Of a stretch of 64,000 nucleotides of DNA, positions 18,783 through 39,719 are shown in pieces (position 1 is the first letter of the stretch; each line of letters starts with the position of its first letter). Made by a program: the position numbers and the translations under genes. Source of the stretch: Narthecium ossifragum (taxonomy: Eukaryota; Streptophyta; Magnoliopsida; Dioscoreales; Nartheciaceae); assembly GCA_963920575.1 (NCBI GenBank), contig OY986964.1, positions 35,261,825 to 35,325,824 of the forward strand, given 5' to 3'. The notes beneath the pieces are model-generated. The model made no database searches. It had not been told where the DNA came from and saw only the letters and a list, made by a program, of their open reading frames with translations.

Positions 18783-21136
18783 CTACAAGGAGATGTAGCC
18801 ATTGTTGATCATCCACTCCAAGCTCCAATGGACGGCCTGTTCATTCTTCAACGACCAATACGACCAGCCGAACGTCGATCTTCCATAGACGTCGATCTGC
18901 GCCTGCGCAAACCTCTGATAGTCCTCCTTCGACCCACCCTGCACATTCCATTCTCCAGTCCACTCTCCTACAGTAGTGTACATCAGTAGCTAGAAACATT
19001 AATTCTTAAATTTAGAGATCGATCTCACATTCATCAATTAAGTATGGAAATTAATAAGTAAATTGTTATTACCTACGAAAATGGGAGGTCCATTGGCCCG
19101 GCTGGTCAGGGTGCCCAATTGATTGGCCCTGTTGTTGTAGATATAGTCGATGTTCTGCTGCGCAGTCATGCTTTTGAACATGGAAGTATAGAGATTGTAG
19201 TAGTGCACGTCGACCACCGAGCCCTGGAATCCACTCGCGAACTGAAGGAGCTCCGTGTCGTCGGAGATGGACAGCCGGTTCGACATGATCACGTAGGCGG
19301 CCGAGGTGTGCCTGCGCACTGCAGCGTAGCCGGCCTGGTAGTACTTGGTCAGGCTGTCCAGGGTCACCCCGGGCGCCGTAGGCTCGTTGATCAGCTCCAC
19401 GGCGAGGAGGCTCGGATGGCTGCCATACCTGGCTGCAAGGAATTCGATGACCTGCACTGTTTGAGCGATGTTGTCATCAGTCTTGCCCCATTCCTGGGAG
19501 CCATCCCTGGATCCGCTGTGATCGTTGCCATTTTGGGATCCAGGTGCTGCATGGAGATCAACGATGACCTTGAGGTTGTAACTCCTGCATGTCCAGTGTG
19601 TATTGTTTAATTAGATAACATACTCTGTTTCTAGGATATATATATATGGACGCTGATTGGGCTACATGGGCAGAGCATGTACATTACACAAGCCCTTGAA
19701 TCGGTGGGGATATACCGATTGATTAGAACAATGCCGATTCAATCGGTATATATATACCGATTGATTGAGCTCGTCGATTCAATCGGTATGTATATACCGA
19801 TTGATTGATCTCGTCTATTAGTAGAACAATAACGATGAAATAGATCAATCAAGATACCTATTAGAGCTATTAGAGGGCATGTCTTTATAATATATACACT
19901 ACAAATTGAGAACATGCATACAGTAGAATTATTCTTACTGAGCCCATCTAAAGGCATTGTCCAGAGCTTGCAAGGATCCGCCGACAAAGGGCGCCGGAGG
20001 GTTGGGGTCGCTGGCGATCCACCAGCCTACCGGAATCCTCACGCCACCCAGTCCATGCTGTGAGATGAACTGGAAGTCTGCCTCTACTATCCAGGTGTTC
20101 CAGTGATTCTGTGATGCATTCAATCACATATCACATATGCAAGAGTAAGTTGATGGCTAGCATTAAAAAAATCTTCAACTCTTGACATGATCACAGACCT
20201 GCATGACAGAGGGGGCCTGTTGAGGTCCATAGCCATTGGTGACTTGGAACTCCCCCTGCATCGACCCGAATCTAGTCAGCAAGAACACAGAAGGATCGTC
20301 GTCTCCCCAGGTCGTGTCTCCGGGATGGTCCGCCGTCAACTGCGTCGCCGTCTTCACCTGACCAAATTAAAGCCCATGGCATACATACTTTAAAATCTAC
20401 AATCTGAAACAAAATTAAAGATAAAACCATAAGATTAATACTATGTCGTATACCTGCACGAAAAACCCATTTGAGGACTTTAGCCGAACTCGGGTGTTAT
20501 CATTGGGATCCAACACAATCTCAAAAGTCTCCCATGCTTGGGGATTCGCCGCCACGGCCACCAGGTTTCCCCCATTGTCATGTCCCATGAACTGCCCCCC
20601 AAACACTCGGAAGTTGAACGTCGACTCTGAGATCCTCCACAGCTATATATCCATCCATCCATGCATTATATAAACCACATTAACACCAATGAATCTAATC
20701 AAACTTCACCTATATATATGTATAATAGATGAGATGCAAAACCTTGAATGTCTCCCAACCGGAAGCATTGGGCCGGTTGGCGACGATGTTTGTCCCGCCG
20801 CCGTTCTCGGCGGAGAGATACATCCCCTGCGTCACCGACTTGAACTGGACTTGCGTGCCATCCTGTATATGTAATTAACAACATCAAACTTCTCGATCGA
20901 CAAGCTCTTGATCATAAGCTATACAAACAAATTAAACACTAATACATGAGAAAACTCACCAAGAAATCCTTGTTGGGTATGCCATCGAAGAGGGACGGCG
21001 TCATCCATCCCTCGGTGACGAGCCATCCTCCAAGGTTGACAGACTTGAGGGTTTCAGCGTTAGAGAAAGAGGTGAGACACAAGACAATGAGAAGAGATGA
21101 GAGGCATCTACTGCTGGAAAAGTACTGTAAAGCCAT
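18783..21136 (-). CDS. Glycoside hydrolase family 5 glucan 1,3-beta-glucosidase-like protein (copy 1, intact)
   Basis: Seven exons (minus): 21136-20960, 20862-20743, 20642-20454, 20357-20199, 20108-19939, 19584-19073, 18967-18783. All GT-AG and in frame; 503 residues. A signal peptide of about 27 residues (ending FSNA) predicts secretion to the wall. NLGGWLVTEGWMTPSLF opens the GH5 fold; a fascin-like beta-trefoil insert follows at about residues 60-165. The catalytic acid/base is Glu339 in AVELINEP and the nucleophile is Glu444 in IFVGEW, whose codon follows the last intron. Late motifs GWSYWSLKNE and HWSLE are present. The family hydrolyses beta-1,3-glucans or related wall glucans; the plant substrate is not established from sequence. 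A TATATAA box lies at 21204-21198. A frameshifted paralogue lies at 43405-38766. Confidence 0.93.
19695..19815. repeat. Tandem palindromes in GH5 intron 5
   Basis: Three neighbouring copies of a palindrome of form AATCGGTA(TA)nTACCGATT, followed by GATT and a short linker ending CTCGTC. They lie in the intron between exons 5 and 6 of copy 1; the matching intron of copy 2 lacks them. Confidence 0.8.
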
Positions 21137-24040: not shown

Positions 24041-24359
24041 TATGGCCTGTTTGGTTGCTGAGAAGTGAGCTGAAGTGAAGTGACTTCTGGGGAGTGACTT
24101 TCTGGGGAGTGACTTTCTGAGGAGTGACTTTCTGAGATTTTTTGAGTTCTGGTGTTTGGTTGCTGCTTGAAGTGGATGCTGAGAAGTGGTAAATTCTGTC
24201 ACTTTTGCTGTTTGGTTGGTGCTGAAGTGGTGCTGAAGTGGATGCTGAGTTTCGATATTTTCTGAGTTCTGGTGTTTGGTTGATGCTTGAAGTGGGGATA
24301 TGGTCACCCCAAATGCAGGTGGTGAGCATACCGCCCATATTCTTGATGTATTAGATCTA

Positions 24360-24790
24360 AATGTTGTAATCCGGGTAGATCAATCCAAACCGGTTTGGAT
24401 CGATCTAACCCAGTCTGGATCGATCCAAACTTATTCCGGATCGATCCAACCTAGTCTGGATCGATCCACACTTATTCCGGATCGATCTGGATCGATCCAC
24501 ACTTATTCCGGATCGATCCACACCAGTCAGGATCGATCCAAATGTATTCCGGGTAGATCAATCTAAACCGGTTTGGATTGATCCAAAACCTTTCCAGGGA
24601 CCAGTTTTGCAGTTTTACACATCGGATCGATCCAAACCAGTCTGGATCGATCCAAAACCCATTCCACTCTCTGTTACATATTGGATGGATCCAAACTCAT
24701 ATTGGATCGATCCAAGCCGTTAGAAACCCAAATTTTGGCATCTTGGCTCGATCCAAACCTATTTAGGATCGATCGAAGATTTTTTGAGTG
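24360..24790. repeat. Cluster of GGATCGATCC palindromes
   Basis: More than ten copies of a TCGATCC-centred word, often GGATCGATCCAAAC, within about 430 bases. Similar clusters occur in the Copia LTRs at 43.9-44.1 kb and 45.8-46.1 kb. A TATA-like CTATAAATAAGGGTTTTGG follows at about 24838-24856, comparable to GGCTATAAATAGGATGC in those LTRs. The segment about 24300-25020 may therefore be a diverged LTR inserted in the Harbinger element. Confidence 0.6.
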
Positions 24791-25789
24791 GTAAAAACGG
24801 ACAGTTCTGATCTGATCGGAGGATCCACGACTTGGGGTCTATAAATAAGGGTTTTGGCTCTTATTTTTTGGAGCTTTTTCCCTCTTATAACAATATGCTA
24901 TAATTAAGATAATCAATTATCCATGTTTTCCATTATCAGCGCGGGGACAAGGCTGTGCGAATAAGGGGAGTGCGGGGACAAATACCACAGTATCCGCCCC
25001 ATTGCCATCACAAATGGTGCTAATGTTAGGGGACATCATCTCCAAGTCATGACCCGTGAACCCGACCCGACCCGTTTAATAAACAGATTAGACAAGTCAA
25101 ATGGATTTGACCCGTTTATAAATGGATTGGATTTGAGTTTTATACATTGGACTTTATTTTTTCTAACACGACTTGTATTTTTTCTCGACATTAGAAATAA
25201 AATCATCCAATACATGTAGCAATTACTCACATTACTTACATTTTCATGCATTGGATGAAATGAAAAAATAGAGATGTAAAGGAAAAAAGTTGAAAAATAC
25301 AACTTCTATTTTTTCAAAACACAGCTGTAAACACCCACTTTAGATTACAAACTTGAAAAATACAACATATATTGTATCTAGCACAACCTGTAAATACAAA
25401 ACTAAAACACATGTTTCACAATTACAAACTCAAAAAATACAACTTAAATAACTTACAAAACCGACCAACCCTTGATATCATAATTACATGTCACAAAAAG
25501 ACTGATTCCCTGGACATACATACACACGTACAATACAGCAAATGACTGACTCTTGAATACATCTGTTTGTTGTCGATCGCAATGCTTGTCCTGTACAATC
25601 GTATATAAAAAACACAAGGGCTCAGAATTTGGATCATCATTGCCCTTCTTTAGCGGCAATTGGTTGCTTAACAGATTAAGCCATCCAAATCACCAAGCCT
25701 CTCCTCCCCCATGAGAATCATCATTTCCCCAACACCATATGACATTATAAGCAATTTTCATCATCTCCCCGTGTTCATAAACAACAATA

Positions 25790-27275
25790 AACCATAAACC
25801 AATAAATCCATCATAGAAATCAGATTGCATCGAATGGCTGCCAATCATAAAAATCAGATTGCATCTAGGCTCAGTGGCACATCCTAGGCAGCAGTAACAT
25901 AAACCAAATCCAATCAGATAAAATTCAGATTGCATCTAATAGGCTCAGTTTCACATCACAGCAGTAACATAAACCAATAATTTGAATCATAGAAATCTGA
26001 TTGCATCGAATGGCTGCCAATCATAAAAAATCAGATTGCATCTAGGCTCAGTTGCACATCCTAGGCAGCAGTAACATAAACCAAATCCAATCAGATAAAA
26101 ATCAGAGTACGGAAAATAGGCTCAATTTCACATCACAGCAGTAACATAAACCAATAATTTGAATCATAGAAATCCGATTGCATCGAATGGCATCTAATAT
26201 AAAAAATCAGATTGCATCTAGGCTCAGTTGCACATCCTAGGCAGCAGTAATATAAACCAAATCCAATCAGATAAAATTCAGATTGCATCTAATAGGCTCA
26301 GTTTCACATCACAGCAGTAACATAAACCAATAAATCCATCATAGAAATCAGATTGCATCGAATGGCTGCCAATCATAAAAATCAGATTGCATCTAGGCTC
26401 AGTTGCACATCCTAGGCAGCAGTAACATAACCAATAAATCCATCATAAAAATCAGATTGCATCTAATAAGCTCAGTTTCACATCACAGCATGTACATAAA
26501 CCAATAAATCCATCATAGAAATCAGATTGCATCTAATAGGCTCAGTTTCACATCACAGCATGTACATAAACCAATAAATCCATCATAGAAATCAGATTGC
26601 ATCTAATAGGCTCAGTTTCACATCACAGCATGTACATAAACCAATAAATCCATCATAGAAATCAGATTGCATCTAATGGCTGCCAAAGATAAAAATCAGA
26701 TTGCATCTAGGCTCAGTTGCACATCCTAGGCAGCAGTAACATAAACCAAATCCAATCAGATAAAAATCAGATTGCATCTAATAGGCTTAGTTTCACATCA
26801 CAGCAGTAACATAAACCAATAAATCCATCATAGAAATCAGATTGCATCTAATGGCTGCCAATAAAAATCAGATTGCATCTAATAGGCTTGGCTCAGTTTC
26901 ACATCATAGCATGAAGCAATAAATCCATCATAAAATCAGATTGCATCTAATGGCTGCCAATCAAAATCAGATTGCATCTAATAGGCTTGGCTCAGTTTCA
27001 CATCATAGCATGAAGCAATAAATCCATCATAAAATCAGATTGCATCTAATGGCTGCCAATCAAAATCAGATTGCATCTAATAGGCTTGGCTCAGTTTCAC
27101 ATCATAGCATGAAGCAATAAATCCATCATAAAATCAGATTGCATCTAATGGCTGCCAATCAAAATCAGATTGCATCTAATAGGCTTGGCTCAGTTTCACA
27201 TCATAGCATGAAGCAATAAATCCATCATAAAATCAGATTGCATCTAATGGCTGCCAATCAAAATCAGATTGCATC
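25790..27275. repeat. Minisatellite block 1 inside the Harbinger element
   Basis: Repeats built on AAATCAGATTGCATCTAATAG plus GGCTCAGTTTCACATCA and CATAAACCAATAAATCC, roughly 70 bases per simple unit. From about 26870 to 27270 a roughly 100-base higher-order unit is repeated about four times almost unchanged. It lies downstream of the three genes of the transposon. Confidence 0.93.
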
Positions 27276-27600
27276 CAAATCACCAAGCCTCTCCTCCCCC
27301 ATGAACACATTTGAATCATCATTTCCCCAACACCATATGACATTATAAGCAGTTTTCATCATCTCCCCATGATCAGAAACCAACAAGTCCATGACATAAA
27401 AATCAGACCACACCAAATCAAATTGCATTATAGGCTGTTTTCATCATCTCCCCATGATCATAAACAACAGAAAATCATAAAGCAACTAAATCCATCACAA
27501 AAAAAATCCATTACATTGGAAAGTGAGTGACTGCCCATCAAATAGCCATAAACACAAGGGGCTCAATTTCATAATAACCAACAAGTCCATGACATAGAAA

Positions 27601-27873
27601 TCAACTCGTGGTGAAAAACACAATAAACCCTAATGCAATACACAATCCAATAGCAGTTGCAATTCCAAATTCAAACCGACCACACCCTCTTGTACCGGAA
27701 TTAGTTGCACGGGGCAATTGAGATGCATACTCATGATATGAATTTAAAGCGTCATTTCTATTATAAAACCCCCGATAACACGCCCCACCAAACCGATGCA
27801 CTTGTTCATGGCATGCCGGCCACGAATCATATACACCGGGTCGTCTCCCTTTGTAGACGACATAGTATTTCAT
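27601..27873 (-). CDS. RNase H1 N-terminal (Cauli_VI/viroplasmin)-type small protein with hydrophobic C-terminus
   Basis: A complete 90-codon frame with its own ATG and TGA. Residues 1-47 (KYYVVYKGRRPGVYDSWPAC, then FGGACYRGFYNRNDALNSY) fit the small RNA/DNA-hybrid-binding fold at the start of RNase H1 proteins, known in databases as Cauli_VI. Residues about 69-87 are a single hydrophobic segment (IATAIGLCIALGFIVFF) close to the C-terminus, so a tail-anchored membrane protein is possible. No RNase H catalytic domain follows. It lies on the same strand as the two transposon genes and 300 bases after the Myb-like gene, inside the same terminal repeats. A role in transposition is not known; it may be a captured host gene piece kept open by chance or use. 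Confidence 0.72.
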   Translation of the reverse strand: MKYYVVYKGRRPGVYDSWPACHEQVHRFGGACYRGFYNRNDALNSYHEYASQLPRATNSGTRGCGRFEFGIATAIGLCIALGFIVFFTTS

Positions 27874-28175
27874 GATTTCAAGCTGCCAATCAATAGGAAA
27901 TCAACTCAAATTGCCAAATACATGAACTGCATAGTATACAATAAACTATAGCTGCCAATCAAAAGAAAATCAATTGATTGGCAAATACACAAGTCAATAC
28001 GTGGGTTGTATGATACAAAATCAACTATACACATGCATTTGGAAATTAGGGATTGGCTTGCATCCGTGAATCCCAAAAGCCCATGCACCCCAAAAAGAAC
28101 CCAAAAAACCACCATAAAACCCACATCAAGCAGCTACAAGTGTCATATAATGTTTACATGCGTACAATATAAAAG

Positions 28176-29259
28176 TCAATTGTGCCTATTGGGATCAAAG
28201 AAGTCTTTCAACCACATCTTCCGGTGTTTTATGCTCATCACCAAGAATCCACGTGCTTCTACCTCGTCCCGGTTGAGCACATTGAAAACACGTAGAAGAT
28301 CCTCCTCGGGGTAATCAGTTGCACATTCCATAACTGATGCATATAATTTATCGGTCGACTTGACATTGCCGGATAGAATGGCATCCCCAACCTTCTCAAT
28401 AACTCTTACAAATGTGTCATCCCTCGTCTCTCTCGACCGCTTACTAGCAAATGCCCGAGCTGGCATACGTGCAACAGTTTCGGCCATAGTCATGCGCACA
28501 GAAGTCTCACCTTCACTTGTGCCTACATTAGTGTTGTTATGCCCAGTGGGCGTGCTCCCCGTGTCCATGGCAGCCGGACTATCGGCAGCCTCATCGGTTG
28601 GGATAAAGGGGGGGCAAGACCCCGCATCCTCGAGATCTATGACAGGCTCGTTAGGATTAGCCTCGTCATGGGTGGACCGAGCAAATCTGCCCGAGGCCCT
28701 CTCCTCGCAGCAACAAGCGGTAAGCAAGTCAAAATTAGGGATTGGCTTGTTAATAAGGTTCCTAGCATTAGGGTGTGCCTACATAATAAGAGAAGTATTA
28801 GGCAATTTCAAATGCAAGACATTAATTCATGTCAAGTATTAGGCAATGCCAACGCACCGCAATGTACGCCGCGGCGACATCCACATCCATCGAGAACTTC
28901 TTGTCAAGTTCTGTCCACCCACAACCGCTAAGTTTATGCAAACATTTAATGACCTCGTACTTCCTTCGACACCATCCCATGTGATTCTGGACATGTTTGA
29001 GCTCGAAGTCCCCTTTAGGCTCAAGTTTGTCATTCACATACTTGGCCGCCGCATTAAAGTGGCTAGTTTTAAACCACCTATCCCCTTTGGGCCGGCCCTT
29101 CTTAACCTCAGCGAGGTACTCTAGGAGGTAAGCCTCCTCCGTGTCAGTCCACCTCTTATTCTGACTGCCTGTTTTGCCGGTGACCTTCGCCTTGCCCTTG
29201 GTATTAGGCCCACCAGGAGGTTGTTGCGAGTCATCTTCGCATTGAGAGGAAGAATCCAT
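28176..29259 (-). CDS. Myb/SANT-like DNA-binding protein of the PIF/Harbinger element (ORF1)
   Basis: Two exons, 29259-28858 and 28778-28176, GT-AG and in frame, give 334 residues. The Myb/SANT-like domain covers about residues 31-140: KRWTDTEEAYLLEYLAEVKK, FKTSHFNAAAKYVNDKL, VQNHMGWCRRKYEVIKCL, and after the intron KPIPNFDLLTACCCEERASG. The C-terminal half is acidic then helical and lacks known domains. In this superfamily ORF1 binds transposon ends and helps import the transposase (established for rice Ping/mPing and HARBI1/NAIF1). It follows the transposase gene on the same strand by about 160 bases. Confidence 0.88.
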
Positions 29260-29424
29260 ATTCTGTAAATAGTCGAATGCGATATAGGCATTTAAAATAT
29301 ACCGCATACGCCAGTAACATGGTGCATAGAATACTGTACGCGTTTATAAGCAAGATAATAAGAAGTTAACATCTCAAAGTAAATTTTACAAATTGTCAGC
29401 CGAATAGTTCATGTAACAAAATCC

Positions 29425-30774
29425 CTAACGATCTCGTTGGAAGTCAAGCCACATCTGTTCCGCGATTTCCTCGCGCAAATTGAGCCAAACACCTTGCTCT
29501 TGGCGTTGCTCTCTCGTCGTGCACGGTTGTGTGATTGGTGGGTCATCTTCGATGGTGTCTACCATCATTAGTGGGTCGTTTGGGGATTTGTCAAGTATGA
29601 AATTATGCAAAATACAACAAGCAAGGACAATCTCAACTTGTGTCTTGTAGGGGTAAAATGGATGTGATGCGAGGATCTTGAAGCGGTTTTTAAGCAAACC
29701 AAACGCTCGTTCAATCCTAGATCTTAGAGACGAGTGACGTAGGTTAAAGAGCTCCTTTTTGTTTTCTGGAATGCGTCCAACAAACTCGTTGAGATGGTAC
29801 CTTACACCCCGGTACGGTGCAACAAACCCAGGCATCGTTGGGTACCCGGCATCTACAAGGTAATACTTCCCTACAAGATTAGAAAGGGTTTCAAACGGCT
29901 CGTAAGCCTAATCAAGTATGAAGCTAAACGACGATTGTGTGGGGATACTTATACCTTCAATGGTTTTCAAGCCACCGGGAGGTGGTCGAGAAAGGGCGTC
30001 TTTCAAGACAGTGTAGTCATTGGCCGACCCTTCCCAACCAGCCAAGACATAGGTAAAATGAAGGTCAGGTGTAGCAGCAGCTAAGACGTTCTGTGTAAGA
30101 CCCTTACGACCTCGGAAAGGAAGTGCCATGTCGACGGGGACAGTGGCATCTACGTGAGTTCCATCTATGAGGCCGATACAATTCTACAGGGAAAAAACCG
30201 AAGCGTTCATGGTGAGTTCTGGAAACTATGAAATTGAGGGACGTCATTATGTGCAAAGAGGGTTGGATAGTACCTCAAAGTACGGAAAATATGAACGGTT
30301 GTACCGAATTTCAGGGTGTGTTGATGAGCCAGGTTGTTGCATAAATGTGTCGCGGAGGGCCAGTACCGCCTTCAAAACTATGTGGAAATATCGACTGATG
30401 GTCTCACCAGACAACATAAACTCCATGCGCATGACCCGATTTTTCGTGTTATGCCCCACAATATGCAGGAATATACATAATTGTTCTTCAACTTTGACAT
30501 GATCAGTGTCTATCAGAAGTTGGCGTGCTCTCATCACTCTTGCTAACTCATGCAGCGCGTCTGCATCCATACGGATGTAACTAATAGAGTAATCCCCCCC
30601 AGGTCTCAATATCCTATCCATATGCCCTTCCCGCAACACAAGTCGTTGCTCACGCTGTATAACACATATGTTATCACGTGAGCCAAGGTAGCGACGCACC
30701 ACCGCGACAGCGACTACATAGGCTGCAGCTAGCATCCTCATCCGCTCAAATTGCTCGTCGTCGCCATTGGCCAT
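29425..30774 (-). CDS. PIF/Harbinger DDE transposase
   Basis: Three exons, 30774-30274, 30183-29955 and 29870-29425, GT-AG and in frame, give 391 residues with no stops. The N-terminal helical part includes EQLCIFLHIVGHNTKNRVM. The DDE_4/HARBI1-type nuclease follows: first Asp in NCIGLIDGTHV, second Asp in GWEGSANDYTVL, VDAGYP, and the Glu in RSRIERAFGLLKNRFKIL, with the usual CCILHNFI after it. All three acidic residues are present, so the enzyme could be active. It cuts and pastes elements with matching ends and may also move related MITEs. Upstream about 2.3 kb to the right terminus contains GC-rich leader and minisatellite block 2. Confidence 0.92.
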
Positions 30775-31369
30775 CTAATATAAAAGTCAAACTTTAACTA
30801 AAAACCCTATAAAACACCTATATTTGTATCTATTTGCATGTAAAACAGCTATACCAACATGAGTATGTAAAGAACATGACATGAAATCATAAATTCAAAT
30901 AGGGGATCAGCTACTACCAACATGAGCATGAAGAAACCATAGAGTAGGGGATCAGATCAAGCCCAATGCATAACACATTAATGGCAGCCTCATTACTAAT
31001 AGCATAGCATATCAGATCGCATACTAGTATCATACGAATAGATCATCCCACGCAACAGCGTCATTAAAGATTGCAAGTGGATAAGACTGCATAAGGAATC
31101 AGATAGCCAAAATGCCAAGCAGATTGCATACTAATAGATCACATTGCATAATAGTAGCATGCTAATAGAAAATACAAAGCCCTAGAATCGGATTGCATAC
31201 TCATGACATAACAATAGATCAACCCACATGGCAATGGCATACTAACAGCGAATGAATCAGATTGCATAAGGGATCAGATCGCATACTAAAGCAGCAATTG
31301 CAATGGCATACAAATAGCAATACTCAAGCCAAGGGGATCAGGTATGATAAATGCGTTGAAAGAATAGAA

Positions 31370-32345
31370 GAATCGAACCACTCAGGACTTGGAGAATATA
31401 CATGAAGAATCAAGCCATAAAAGCACAGATCGGCCCAAATAAAAGCACAGAAACCAGGCAGGGGATCAGATCCAGAAAATGCACCATTTATACTTGAAGA
31501 ACCATGCCATTAAAGCACAGAAACCAGGCAAGGGGATCAGTTCCACGCAATGCACCATTTATACATGAAGAATCAAGCCATAAAAGCACAGATCGACCCA
31601 AATAAAAGCACAGAAACCAGGCAGGGGATCAGATCCAGGAATTACATGAACAATCACAAGCCATAAAAGCACAGAAAACCCAGCAAGGGGATCAGATCCA
31701 GGAAATGCACCATATATACATGAAGAATCAAGCCATAAAAGCACAGATCGGCTCAAATAAAAGCACAGAAACCAGGCAGGGGATCAGATCCAGGAAATGC
31801 ACCATTTATACTTGAAAAACCATGCCATAAAAGCACAGAAACCAGGCAAGGGGATCAGTTCCAGGCAATGCACCATTTATACATGAAGAATCAAGCCATA
31901 AAAGCACAGATCGGCCCAAATAAAAGCACAGAAACCAGGCAGGGGATCAGATCCAGCAAATACATGAACAATCACAAGCTATAAAAGCACAGAAAACCCG
32001 GCAAGGGGATCAGATCCAGGAAATGCAGCATATAACATGAAGAATCAAGCCATAAAAGCACAGATCGGCCCAAATAAAAGCACAGAAAGCAGGCAGGGGA
32101 TCAGATCCAGCAAATACATGAACAATCACAAGCCATAAAAGCACAGAAAACCCGGCAAGGGGATCAGATCCAGGAAATGCAGCATATAACATGAAGAATC
32201 AAGCCATAAAAGCATAGATAGGCCCAAATAAAAGCACAGAAACCAGACAGGGGATCAGATCCAGGAAATGCACCACTTATACTTGAAGAACCAAGCCATA
32301 AAAGCACAGATCGACCCAAATAAAATCAGATTAACCATGCCAGGG
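31370..32345. repeat. Minisatellite block 2 inside the Harbinger element
   Basis: Repeated words AAGCCATAAAAGCACAGATC, GGCCCAAATAAAAGCACAGA and GGGGATCAGATCCAGGAAAT recur in a higher-order order every roughly 150-190 bases. The block lies between the transposase gene start and the right terminus. Long frames within it are repeat artefacts. Confidence 0.93.
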
Positions 32346-32459
32346 GATCAAATTCAACAAAGAAACAAGCCTCTCGTGACATGGAGAGGAAAACCAGATA
32401 TAAAACCATAGATCTGGAAATGAAACAGGGTACGAAGGTGTAAAAACCTTGAAAAAGGT

Positions 32460-33000
32460 AGCAGGGATCAGACGCCTGGTGTCCGGAGAGGAAAGGGGGG
32501 GTTTCTCGATCGGCCGAGATCCAGATCTACCACCGGGCTAGATAGCAGCAACCTCCTTGGTTGCCGACCAGATCCAGCACCGCGTGGAGAGGGAAAAGCT
32601 CCTGGGCTCGCAGAGCTTCGGATCCACCACTAGAGAGGTAGCATTAGGGTTCCTGGCCCCGCCGCCCGTCGGATCTACCTCCGGGGAGTGAGAGCCTAAC
32701 AACGCCCGTCAGATCCACCACTAGAGAAGAGGTGGGAGGGTTCCTGGCCCCGCTGCTCCTCAGATCTACCGCCGGGGAGTGAGAGGCTGGCGTGGGTGAC
32801 GAAGAACGGAGGAGACAGAGAGGACCATGGTGGGTGGAGAGACGGCGAGCGAGTGAGATCGGGGGAGAACAGGGTGGAGAGCCGTAGCGGTAAGCTAGGG
32901 TTTCGAGGGTTTGAAGTGGTGCAAAACCCCGAGCGAAGTGAGGATATGAAGTGATCCTCACTTCGAGCGACTCCCGGCCTTTTTGGCCCGGAGTCGCGAG
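32460..33000 (-). other. GC-rich leader region near the 5' end of the Harbinger element
   Basis: CpG-rich DNA between the minisatellite and the right terminus, likely promoter and non-coding first exon of the transposase on the minus strand (inference). A frame at 32961-32644 is low complexity and not recognised. Confidence 0.4.
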
Positions 33001-33149
33001 CGTGAAGTCCAGGCCATTTTGGCCTGGACGCGAAGTGGGTCTGAACTCAGTTCAGACCCACTTCCAACGAACCAAACGTCGGAAGTGGCTGGACTCACTT
33101 TCAAAAAAGTGACTTCACAGCCACTTCCGACGAACCAAACATGCCCATA

Positions 33150-34480
33150 GTCTTAAAGGCTCAGTAGGAGGATATATTGAACTAGTTATTTTTCCAATAC
33201 TGGTTCTTCATGTTCTGGATTCTTCTAGTACTTTAATTCTCTGTTCTTGTTTTTGGATGTAATATTCCAAAAACCAAGGTAACAAAGAATCTCAATTGAC
33301 CTTGAGATTTAAGAGTCTCATAATACGCATTTTTAATTGATTGATGTTCTTTGCCAGAAAAATTTGAGAAATACTAATTTCTAAACAATTCATTATAACT
33401 ATATATTGGAATTCCTTATTAAGGAATTACCGTATATAACTTCATGGACTAAAATCTATTAATATGGAAGCTTCTTTCAGATGCAGTGGAAGATTGATTA
33501 CTCTCATTTTCATAAATTGAATGAGAAATGACAGTATATGATATTTCAACTGCCAGAATTATAAGGGAATTCTTAATTCTAGAAGGATCAATTCTAGACG
33601 AATATGATCTCCTAGAACTAGTAGCAATATCTGCTATTTTTAATACCCTATTTGGGTTAAATGAGATGGTAACTTCACCATCAGTCGTTTGTGATATTTG
33701 ATCAATATCATCATTTATTATCGGCTTTGGTGGGACTACATTTTGTGGTATCCAATTTTCAGGAAAATTTACTTCATCCCATCTAATCTGTCAATTAGTA
33801 GCAATTCGAGATGATAATAAATTACTATCAATTAATAGAGTTTTGCCCGGTGCAGTATGTTGTCTAGCTTTAGGGGCTAAAGTACTTAGTACTTTATAAT
33901 GAATACGATAGATTATTGCTATTGTTTCTGATTGTGGTAAGAATTCACATCCATGAGTCTTTATATTGAGACTGACTGCTTCTAATATATGCGGATCTGG
34001 CAATGAGAGACTTAAATTTGGGTATACATTGAAGTATACTGGATCGTGACTTAAACTTATCTTCATAACTCTCATTAGAGATTGTGTCCAATTTAAGCAT
34101 CTAGCATCCCTTAAACAGGATAGGATTGATGCATTTAATCATGGAAGTGTGAGTGGTTTATAGTCCACTTAAATTAATCCAATGTGGATATAATTATATT
34201 TATTCATATAATTTTGGACATTATCTTCTGATAGAAGATTAAGTGTATGATCTTCTTGATCGATTGATACTGTCATTTTGACATTTTTTATCGCTATTAG
34301 CGATTATAAATCCAGGAATCCGACCTGGTAAATTTCCCTATTTGGGACATCTGGAATAGACCACTTATTAAGTGACTCTAATTCCGTAGAAAATTCTATC
34401 AACTTAATATTTTTCAAAATTTTACTTATATTTCAAGTAATTTTTGAAGAAGATGCCATGCTTATAATATGCAGACTCGA
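33150..34480 (-). pseudogene. Endogenous pararetrovirus fragment with movement-protein region
   Basis: The minus strand from about 34460 downward reads, with several stops, as the 30K-type movement-protein region of a Caulimoviridae polyprotein; the longest open piece is 34075-33791. Conserved features of that protein family (the GKT-like loop, the tyrosine-rich and proline-rich stretches around it) are recognisable over about 300 residues. Stops interrupt it, so it is a relic. Its continuation is displaced 9 kb to 23600-24040 by the Harbinger insertion. No reverse transcriptase, protease or LTR is seen. Similar relics are common in angiosperm genomes. Confidence 0.68.
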
Positions 34481-38760: not shown

Positions 38761-39719
38761 CTCCTCTACAAGGAGATGAAGCCATTGTTGATCATACGCT
38801 CCAAACTCCAATGGACGGACTCTTCATTCTTCAACGACCAATACGACCAGCCGAACGTCGATCGCCCATAGATGTCCATCTGCGCCTGTGCGAAACTCCG
38901 ATAGTCCTCTGGTGACGCTCCCTGCACTTGCCATGCTGCAACCCACTCTCCTACAATAACATCATGAGTAGAAACACTTGTATCAATTGTTGCAGTACGT
39001 TCTCAAATTATATATACTTCAACTGTTGCAATTAATGGTAATTATTATTACCTATGAAAAATGAGGGGTCCGTTGGGCCAGCTGGTCAGAGTGCCCAAAT
39101 CATTGGCCCTGCTGTTCTTGACATGGTCGACGTTCTGCTGCACGGTCATGTCGTCGAAGGCCGGAGAGAAGAGATTATAATAGTGCACGTCGATGACGGA
39201 GCCCGGCAAGCCGCTTGCGAACTCAAGAAGCTCTGTAGGGTCGGCGCCTAGCCGGTTGGCCATGATCACGTAGGCGTCGGAGGTGTGCCTGCGCACCGCG
39301 TCGTAGCCGAGCTTGTAATACTTCATCAGGCTGTGGAGCGTCGTCCCTGGAGCGAGAGGCTCGTTCATAAGCTCGACGGCGAGGAGGGCCGGATTAGGTG
39401 CATACCTGGCCGCAAGGAATTCGATAACTCGCACTGTTTCGTTGATGTTCTCATCAGTCTCACTCCATTCCAGGGAACCATCCCTGGATGAGCTGTGCTC
39501 ATGGCCATTCTGGGATCCGGGTACTGCGTGGAGGTCCACGATCACCTTGAGCTTGTATTTCCTGGAGATCCACAAAGATCCATATATCTACATTAATGCA
39601 TCGTTTTATATTATATATATACTTCAATCGAAAAAAATACAGTAATGTAGACACATCGATGTTTGTGGGTCTCCATGGAACACAAGCTTGAAGTATATAT
39701 ATCGATGTATATATATTAA

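What the first reader, a model, noticed from the sequence alone, without database searches (positions are those of the whole stretch)
27601..27873. Third gene in the Harbinger element: RNase H1 N-terminal-type domain with a membrane-like tail
PIF/Harbinger elements normally carry two genes. Here a complete 90-codon frame on the same strand encodes a hybrid-binding Cauli_VI-type domain fused to one C-terminal hydrophobic segment, with no nuclease. A membrane-tethered RNA/DNA-hybrid binder in a DNA transposon would be new to me.
Basis: partly seen in the sequence, partly recalled or inferred. Interest (0 to 1): 0.75.

Follow-up and report, generated by a model that had tools for sequence, protein, structure and literature searches.

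The report
Third gene of plant Harbinger transposons
In this plant genome a group of jumping genes carries an overlooked third gene, kept in diverged copies, for a tiny protein that joins an RNA/DNA-hybrid-binding type of domain to a membrane anchor, which hints that these transposons act on RNA at a membrane, perhaps to escape silencing.

Summary
The frame at 27601-27873 (-) is real: 90 codons, Cauli_VI/RNase H1 N-terminal domain (62 bits, cut-off 21) plus one C-terminal hydrophobic helix. It lies in a 9104-bp PIF/Harbinger element (24043-33146, ATA duplication) with open transposase and Myb/SANT genes. In the same 379-Mb plant genome 27 of 32 near-full-length close copies lie downstream of this transposase type, and 24 of its 26 closest transposases carry the gene. 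Of 150 scored Cauli_VI matches (401 candidates), 95 have a Harbinger transposase upstream on the same strand within 6 kb, 0 downstream only, 1 opposite (random mean 1.3). Transposases only 35-40% identical also carry it; one sister subfamily (80-83%) seems to lack it. The domain is under purifying selection; the tail varies in sequence, yet 23 of 25 distinct proteins end in a hydrophobic anchor. So it is a conserved, though not universal, third gene of Harbinger elements here; I found no report of it in the open-access papers searched. Hybrid binding, membrane insertion and function are inferred. Favoured mechanism: a membrane-anchored sink for element hybrids or dsRNA that blunts silencing (about 0.35).

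The parts
24043..33146 (-). PIF/Harbinger element, 9104 bp, genes on the minus strand
   Evidence: Ends set by TIRs and by comparison with siblings L031 and L032
24040..24042 (.). target site duplication ATA, left copy
   Evidence: siblings have TAT (L031) and ATA (L032)
33147..33149 (.). target site duplication ATA, right copy
24043..24067 (+). left terminal inverted repeat (imperfect)
   Evidence: pair I24 (79% complementary, 24044-24067 with 33122-33145)
33122..33146 (-). right terminal inverted repeat (imperfect)
30274..30774 (-). transposase exon 1
   Evidence: GT-AG junctions by hand, open reading over three exons, 391 aa, DDE_Tnp_4 72 bits
29955..30183 (-). transposase exon 2
29425..29870 (-). 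transposase exon 3
28858..29259 (-). Myb/SANT gene exon 1
   Evidence: PF12776, 32.8 bits in the spliced 334-aa protein
28176..28778 (-). Myb/SANT gene exon 2
27601..27873 (-). third gene, 90 codons and stop
27745..27870 (-). Cauli_VI / RNase H1 N-terminal domain, residues 2-43
27613..27669 (-). C-terminal hydrophobic segment, residues 69-87
   Evidence: Kyte-Doolittle 2.47; helix 66-89 in the model

Best explanation
SHOWN BY SEQUENCE (about 0.95): the frame is a conserved third gene of a group of PIF/Harbinger transposons in this plant. It encodes a small protein made of an RNase H1 N-terminal (hybrid-binding type) domain and a C-terminal hydrophobic anchor, without nuclease, lying downstream of the transposase on the same strand. 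INFERRED: the tail puts the protein post-translationally into the ER or nuclear envelope, the domain facing cytosol or nucleoplasm, and the domain binds RNA/DNA hybrids or, more weakly, dsRNA. MECHANISM I COMMIT TO (about 0.35): the protein holds the element's own hybrids or dsRNA at that membrane, where part of plant siRNA production takes place, and keeps them from the silencing enzymes, so that the element stays expressed. It would be an accessory anti-silencing gene: helpful, not essential, which fits its absence from one sister subfamily.
Against: No binding, localisation or expression datum. Human K60 position is Gly in 14 of 25 proteins, the window's among them, so binding may be weak. 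P6 residues tied to silencing suppression are 80-110, which need not be this domain (recalled: the domain sits further on). Among recent copies dN/dS is not decisive (WIN-L033 0.86 overall; tail ratios of 1.6-1.9 from 6-7 changes in WIN-L033, L012-L018, L012-L019, L011-L030). 54 of 150 scored matches have no listed transposase within 6 kb, and 12 transposases of 80-83% identity have no listed copy downstream, two fetched ones having none. A tail anchor to another membrane is not excluded.
Confidence: 0.36

Rival explanations
1. Same gene, nuclear role: the tail anchors in the nuclear envelope and the domain grips R-loops or nascent transcripts of the element, tethering the element or its transposition complex to the nuclear periphery.
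For: The domain class binds RNA/DNA hybrids (3bsu match); no mitochondrial dibasic signal in the tail, which leaves ER and nuclear envelope.
Against: No localisation signal or datum; tail-anchored proteins of this size would mostly sit in the whole ER (established knowledge, recalled).
Confidence: 0.25
2. Translation or RNA-handling role: the protein carries element mRNA to ER-bound ribosomes and favours translation of the element's genes, as the viral transactivator with the same domain favours viral translation.
For: P6 is a translational transactivator that binds ribosomal proteins (passages of PMC5670102); ER tail.
Against: P6 is a far larger protein whose ribosome contacts are described for its RNA-binding region; the fold matched is the hybrid-binding domain.
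Confidence: 0.2
3. Passenger: a host or viral gene piece caught once by an ancestor and carried along without benefit to the element.
For: A Cauli_VI gene was reported as captured cargo of a fungal Helitron (passages of PMC4289320); two-gene sister copies exist.
Against: Domain under purifying selection between families; anchor kept where neutral drift would lose it; same order and strand in diverged families.
Confidence: 0.1
4. Artefact: a chance open frame or a broken fragment.
For: Short frame; third-position GC of 0.28-0.38, lower than in the neighbouring genes (0.45-0.58).
Against: Pfam, fold, 32 close copies and diverged relatives.
Confidence: 0.01

Closest known systems
PIF/Harbinger DNA transposons (DDE transposase + Myb/SANT protein)
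   Same: DDE_Tnp_4 transposase, Myb/SANT protein, terminal inverted repeats, 3-bp duplication
   Different: A third gene; duplications ATA/TAT rather than TTA/TAA (the usual ones, recalled); 9.1 kb against a mean of about 4.1 kb for consensus autonomous elements (PMC4482050 passages)
Harbinger and other DNA transposons with epigenetic accessory genes (TET/JBP in rust fungi, SET in oomycetes)
   Same: An extra gene carried by a Harbinger-type element, thought to act on silencing (PMC12730594 passages)
   Different: A modifying enzyme there; a nucleic-acid-binding-type, membrane-anchored protein here; fungi and oomycetes there, plant here
RNase H1 N-terminal hybrid-binding domain (human 3bsu, yeast 1qhk)
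   Same: Fold and aromatic contact residues
   Different: No RNase H catalytic domain; C-terminal hydrophobic anchor
Caulimovirus P6 transactivator/viroplasmin
   Same: Shares the Cauli_VI domain by Pfam name; silencing suppressor
   Different: Large cytoplasmic inclusion-body protein; no short anchored form
Cauli_VI gene (capE) in Pleurotus Helitron helpo1.3
   Same: Cauli_VI gene in a DNA transposon (PMC4289320 passages)
   Different: Helitron in a fungus, described as captured cargo; no anchor mentioned in the passages seen

Membership tests
PIF/Harbinger transposon | DDE transposase of the DDE_Tnp_4/Plant_tran type | tested here: met
   72.1 bits over residues 173-333, cut-off 24.8
PIF/Harbinger transposon | Second gene with Myb/SANT domain | tested here: met
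   PF12776 32.8 bits, cut-off 23.6
PIF/Harbinger transposon | Terminal inverted repeats and a 3-bp target duplication | tested here: met
   Three insertions with ATA, TAT, ATA
PIF/Harbinger transposon | Duplication of the usual TTA/TAA type (recalled) | tested here: not met
   ATA and TAT in the three insertions examined; filed as a PIF/Harbinger-type element on transposase and gene content, its group within the PHIS superfamily left open
Cauli_VI / RNase H1 N-terminal domain | Score over the curated cut-off | tested here: met
   62 bits, cut-off 21
Cauli_VI / RNase H1 N-terminal domain | Fold of the hybrid-binding domain | tested here: met
Cauli_VI / RNase H1 N-terminal domain | Hybrid-contact residues (human W43, K59/K60) | tested here: inconclusive
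   Trp kept in 25 of 25, basic at the first Lys position in 24 of 25, second basic in 10 of 25, Gly in the window
Cauli_VI / RNase H1 N-terminal domain | Binding of RNA/DNA hybrid | not testable with these tools
   needs protein
RNase H1 enzyme | Catalytic RNase H domain | tested here: not met
   Only Cauli_VI found in the 90-aa frame
Tail-anchored membrane protein | Single hydrophobic segment at the extreme C-terminus | tested here: met
   Kyte-Doolittle 2.47, 3 residues after it; no dedicated predictor was at hand
Tail-anchored membrane protein | Post-translational membrane insertion | not testable with these tools
   needs a localisation assay
Caulimovirus P6 | Large multidomain transactivator | tested here: not met
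   90 aa, one domain

The most novel reading that the evidence does not exclude
A large group of plant PIF/Harbinger transposons has kept, since before the split of lineages whose transposases now share under 40% identity, a third protein that anchors a hybrid/dsRNA-binding domain in the ER or nuclear envelope: a transposon-encoded, membrane-based suppressor of RNA silencing.
Probability: 0.3. Interest if true: 0.88.

Novelty: new variant of a known kind. Interest (0 to 1): 0.76.

Why it matters
PIF/Harbinger elements are described as needing two proteins. A third one, conserved between diverged families and optional in one, gives a handle on how such elements stay active under RNA silencing. 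It joins a module best known from R-loop biology to a membrane anchor, an architecture I have not met in a DNA transposon (recall, not a search). It may also explain short 'viroplasmin/RNase H1 N-terminal' gene models in plants (inference; 14 such proteins were found in other, unnamed sequence sources).

Tried and rejected

Literature: eight answered searches bore on transposons with this domain or a third gene (two searches listed 20 of 848 and 10 of 150 papers); two more were on anchors and the domain. None of the listed titles reports this gene in a Harbinger element. Only open-access papers were searched, not Repbase.

Dropped or limited rows: L033 (no ATG) is not among the 25 distinct proteins but is. 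L003-L010 repeat L011-L018 and were not counted. Scored candidates were 150 of 401 (Cauli_VI), 150 of 887 (DDE_Tnp_4; 150 used) and 150 of 738 (transposase exon). One search was given 43 of the 150 transposase places (the first 38 and five more). The 14 proteins came from a query that held the window tail, so their tail rate may be biased. Random placement was uniform and took no account of clustering of transposons.

Full report
What was claimed.

The element. Imperfect inverted repeats bound a 9104-bp element at 24043-33146 with an ATA duplication. Two near-identical siblings elsewhere (L031, L032) confirm the ends and carry their own duplications, TAT and ATA. The transposase (391 aa, three exons) and the Myb/SANT protein (334 aa, two exons) are open after GT-AG splicing chosen by hand. 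Among the best rows for the transposase, Dioscorea, Asparagus and Ananas dominate; the top row is a 671-aa Phaseolus model at 46% identity.

Siblings. All six fetched siblings keep the frame; in two the protein is identical, one has lost the ATG. A DNA search of the genome lists 32 copies covering at least 264 of 270 bases at 92-100% identity. Of these, 27 lie downstream of a window-type transposase on the same strand within 7 kb; of the 26 transposases closest to the window's (88% or more over the last exon), 24 carry the gene.

Other families. A Cauli_VI search of the genome scored 150 of 401 candidates, each over the cut-off. Of the 20 best, fetched with 5 kb on each side, 18 hold a Harbinger transposase upstream on the same strand; L014 and L018 hold none. 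One of the 18, L020, also holds a second transposase downstream, apparently of a neighbouring element. Identity of the transposase to the window's runs from 35-40% (L011, L025-L030) to 88% (L019). The Myb gene lies between in 11 of the 20; in the L011/L027-type loci the third gene follows the transposase match by 73-181 bp. With two capped transposase lists merged into 268 places, 95 of the 150 Cauli_VI matches have a transposase upstream on the same strand within 6 kb, 0 have one downstream only, 1 has one on the other strand, 54 have none listed; uniform random placement gives a mean of 1.26 and a maximum of 5 in 300 runs. With the DDE_Tnp_4 list alone, 37 of 150 transposases have the gene downstream, 1 upstream, 0 opposite. 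Uniform placement ignores clustering of transposons, but the bias of strand and order is an internal control. In eight further loci of 2.2 kb from other length classes, transposase or Myb matches lie in five (L038, L039, L041, L042, L044) and not in L037, L040, L043; for L043 a listed transposase lies 2.5 kb upstream on the same strand.

A subfamily without it. Twelve transposases at 80-83% identity (ranks 27-38) have no listed copy of the gene on the same strand within 10 kb; one has a match on the other strand at nearly 10 kb. In two of them, fetched, transposase and Myb genes are there but no third-gene match (best E 0.083) in the roughly 3 kb beyond the Myb gene; in one of these another element has inserted. 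Since more distant families carry the gene, loss in this subfamily is the simplest reading (inference). The gene is thus not needed by every element.

Selection. Between families the domain changes slowly while silent sites are saturated: WIN-L012 domain dN 0.19; L027-L011 dN 0.136, dS 0.97, ratio 0.14; L011-L026 ratio 0.04. Among recent copies changes are few and do not decide (WIN-L036 0.22, WIN-L033 0.86). The tail evolves fast (L027-L011 ratio 0.74; 1.6-1.9 in four recent pairs with 6-7 changes), yet 23 of 25 distinct proteins end in a segment of mean hydropathy 2.0 or more; L026 (54 aa) and L038 (72 aa) are cut short. Neutral simulation from five tails at 0.7 changes per site leaves an open hydrophobic tail in 0.8-4.1% of runs. 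Tyr4, Trp18 and Tyr33 are invariant in 25 of 25; residue 34 is basic in 24 of 25; residue 35 is Gly in 14, basic in 10. W43A and KK59/60AA changes in the human domain compromise hybrid binding (passages of PMC10639055). Trees of domain and transposase split the loci into the same two groups except L025, a long branch that falls differently; only one inner branch of the domain tree has full support.

Elsewhere. A search seeded with two made-up domain rows found 14 proteins of 82-140 aa in unnamed sequence data, with Cauli_VI in each; 10 end in a strongly hydrophobic segment, 1 (P0128) is borderline, 3 lack it. Their genomic context could not be fetched, so linkage to transposons outside this genome is untested.

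How it may work. Nothing here measures function. One hydrophobic segment at the end of a short protein is the anatomy of a tail-anchored protein; 0 of 33 anchor-bearing proteins hold a dibasic pair in the last eight residues, the signal of many plant mitochondrial tail anchors (passages of PMC4154396; count), which favours the ER or nuclear envelope (inference). Phased siRNA production in Arabidopsis is tied to ER-bound polysomes (abstract of PMC5207768). CaMV P6 suppresses silencing, partly through residues 80-110 (passages of PMC5670102); that it holds this domain is recalled from the Pfam name. I put first a membrane-held sink for element hybrids or dsRNA (about 0.35), then a nuclear-envelope tether (0.25) and a translation role (0.2).

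Known or new. The passages I read on the superfamily speak of two genes in most elements (PMC4482050) or of orf1 and transposase (PMC2213677). Extra genes in Harbinger-type elements are known in fungi and oomycetes (TET/JBP, SET; PMC12730594 passages), and a Cauli_VI gene was reported as cargo of a fungal Helitron (PMC4289320 passages). I found no report of this gene in Harbinger elements in the searches listed under Tried and rejected; Repbase could not be consulted. Verdict: a new variant of a known kind, well supported as a conserved gene in this genome, open in function.

Noticed in passing
33791-34138 (-) and flanks of the element: Right flank encodes a viral movement protein domain (PF01107, 39 bits, cut-off 23), so the transposon seems to have landed in an endogenous pararetrovirus-like stretch. 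Described only.
   Followed up: partly
24378-24559, 25793-27275, 31396-32350: Large tandem arrays inside both subterminal regions of the element (units of about 20-41, 70-176 and 71-154 bp); they account for much of its unusual length.
   Followed up: no
own genome, transposase places ranked 27-38; L045, L046: A sister subfamily (80-83% transposase identity) with transposase and Myb genes but no detectable third gene in two fetched copies.
   Followed up: partly
L001 2750-2881, L002 2976-3107: Two viral contigs encode a 62-aa protein with the same domain and no anchor.
   Followed up: no
L020 9267-9998: A second, window-type Harbinger transposase (86% identity) a few kb downstream on the same strand, apparently a neighbouring element.
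   Followed up: no
19038-19610 (-) and 39048-39587 (-): Two related open frames that look like pieces of a glucosidase/cellulase-type gene (recalled resemblance).
   Followed up: no
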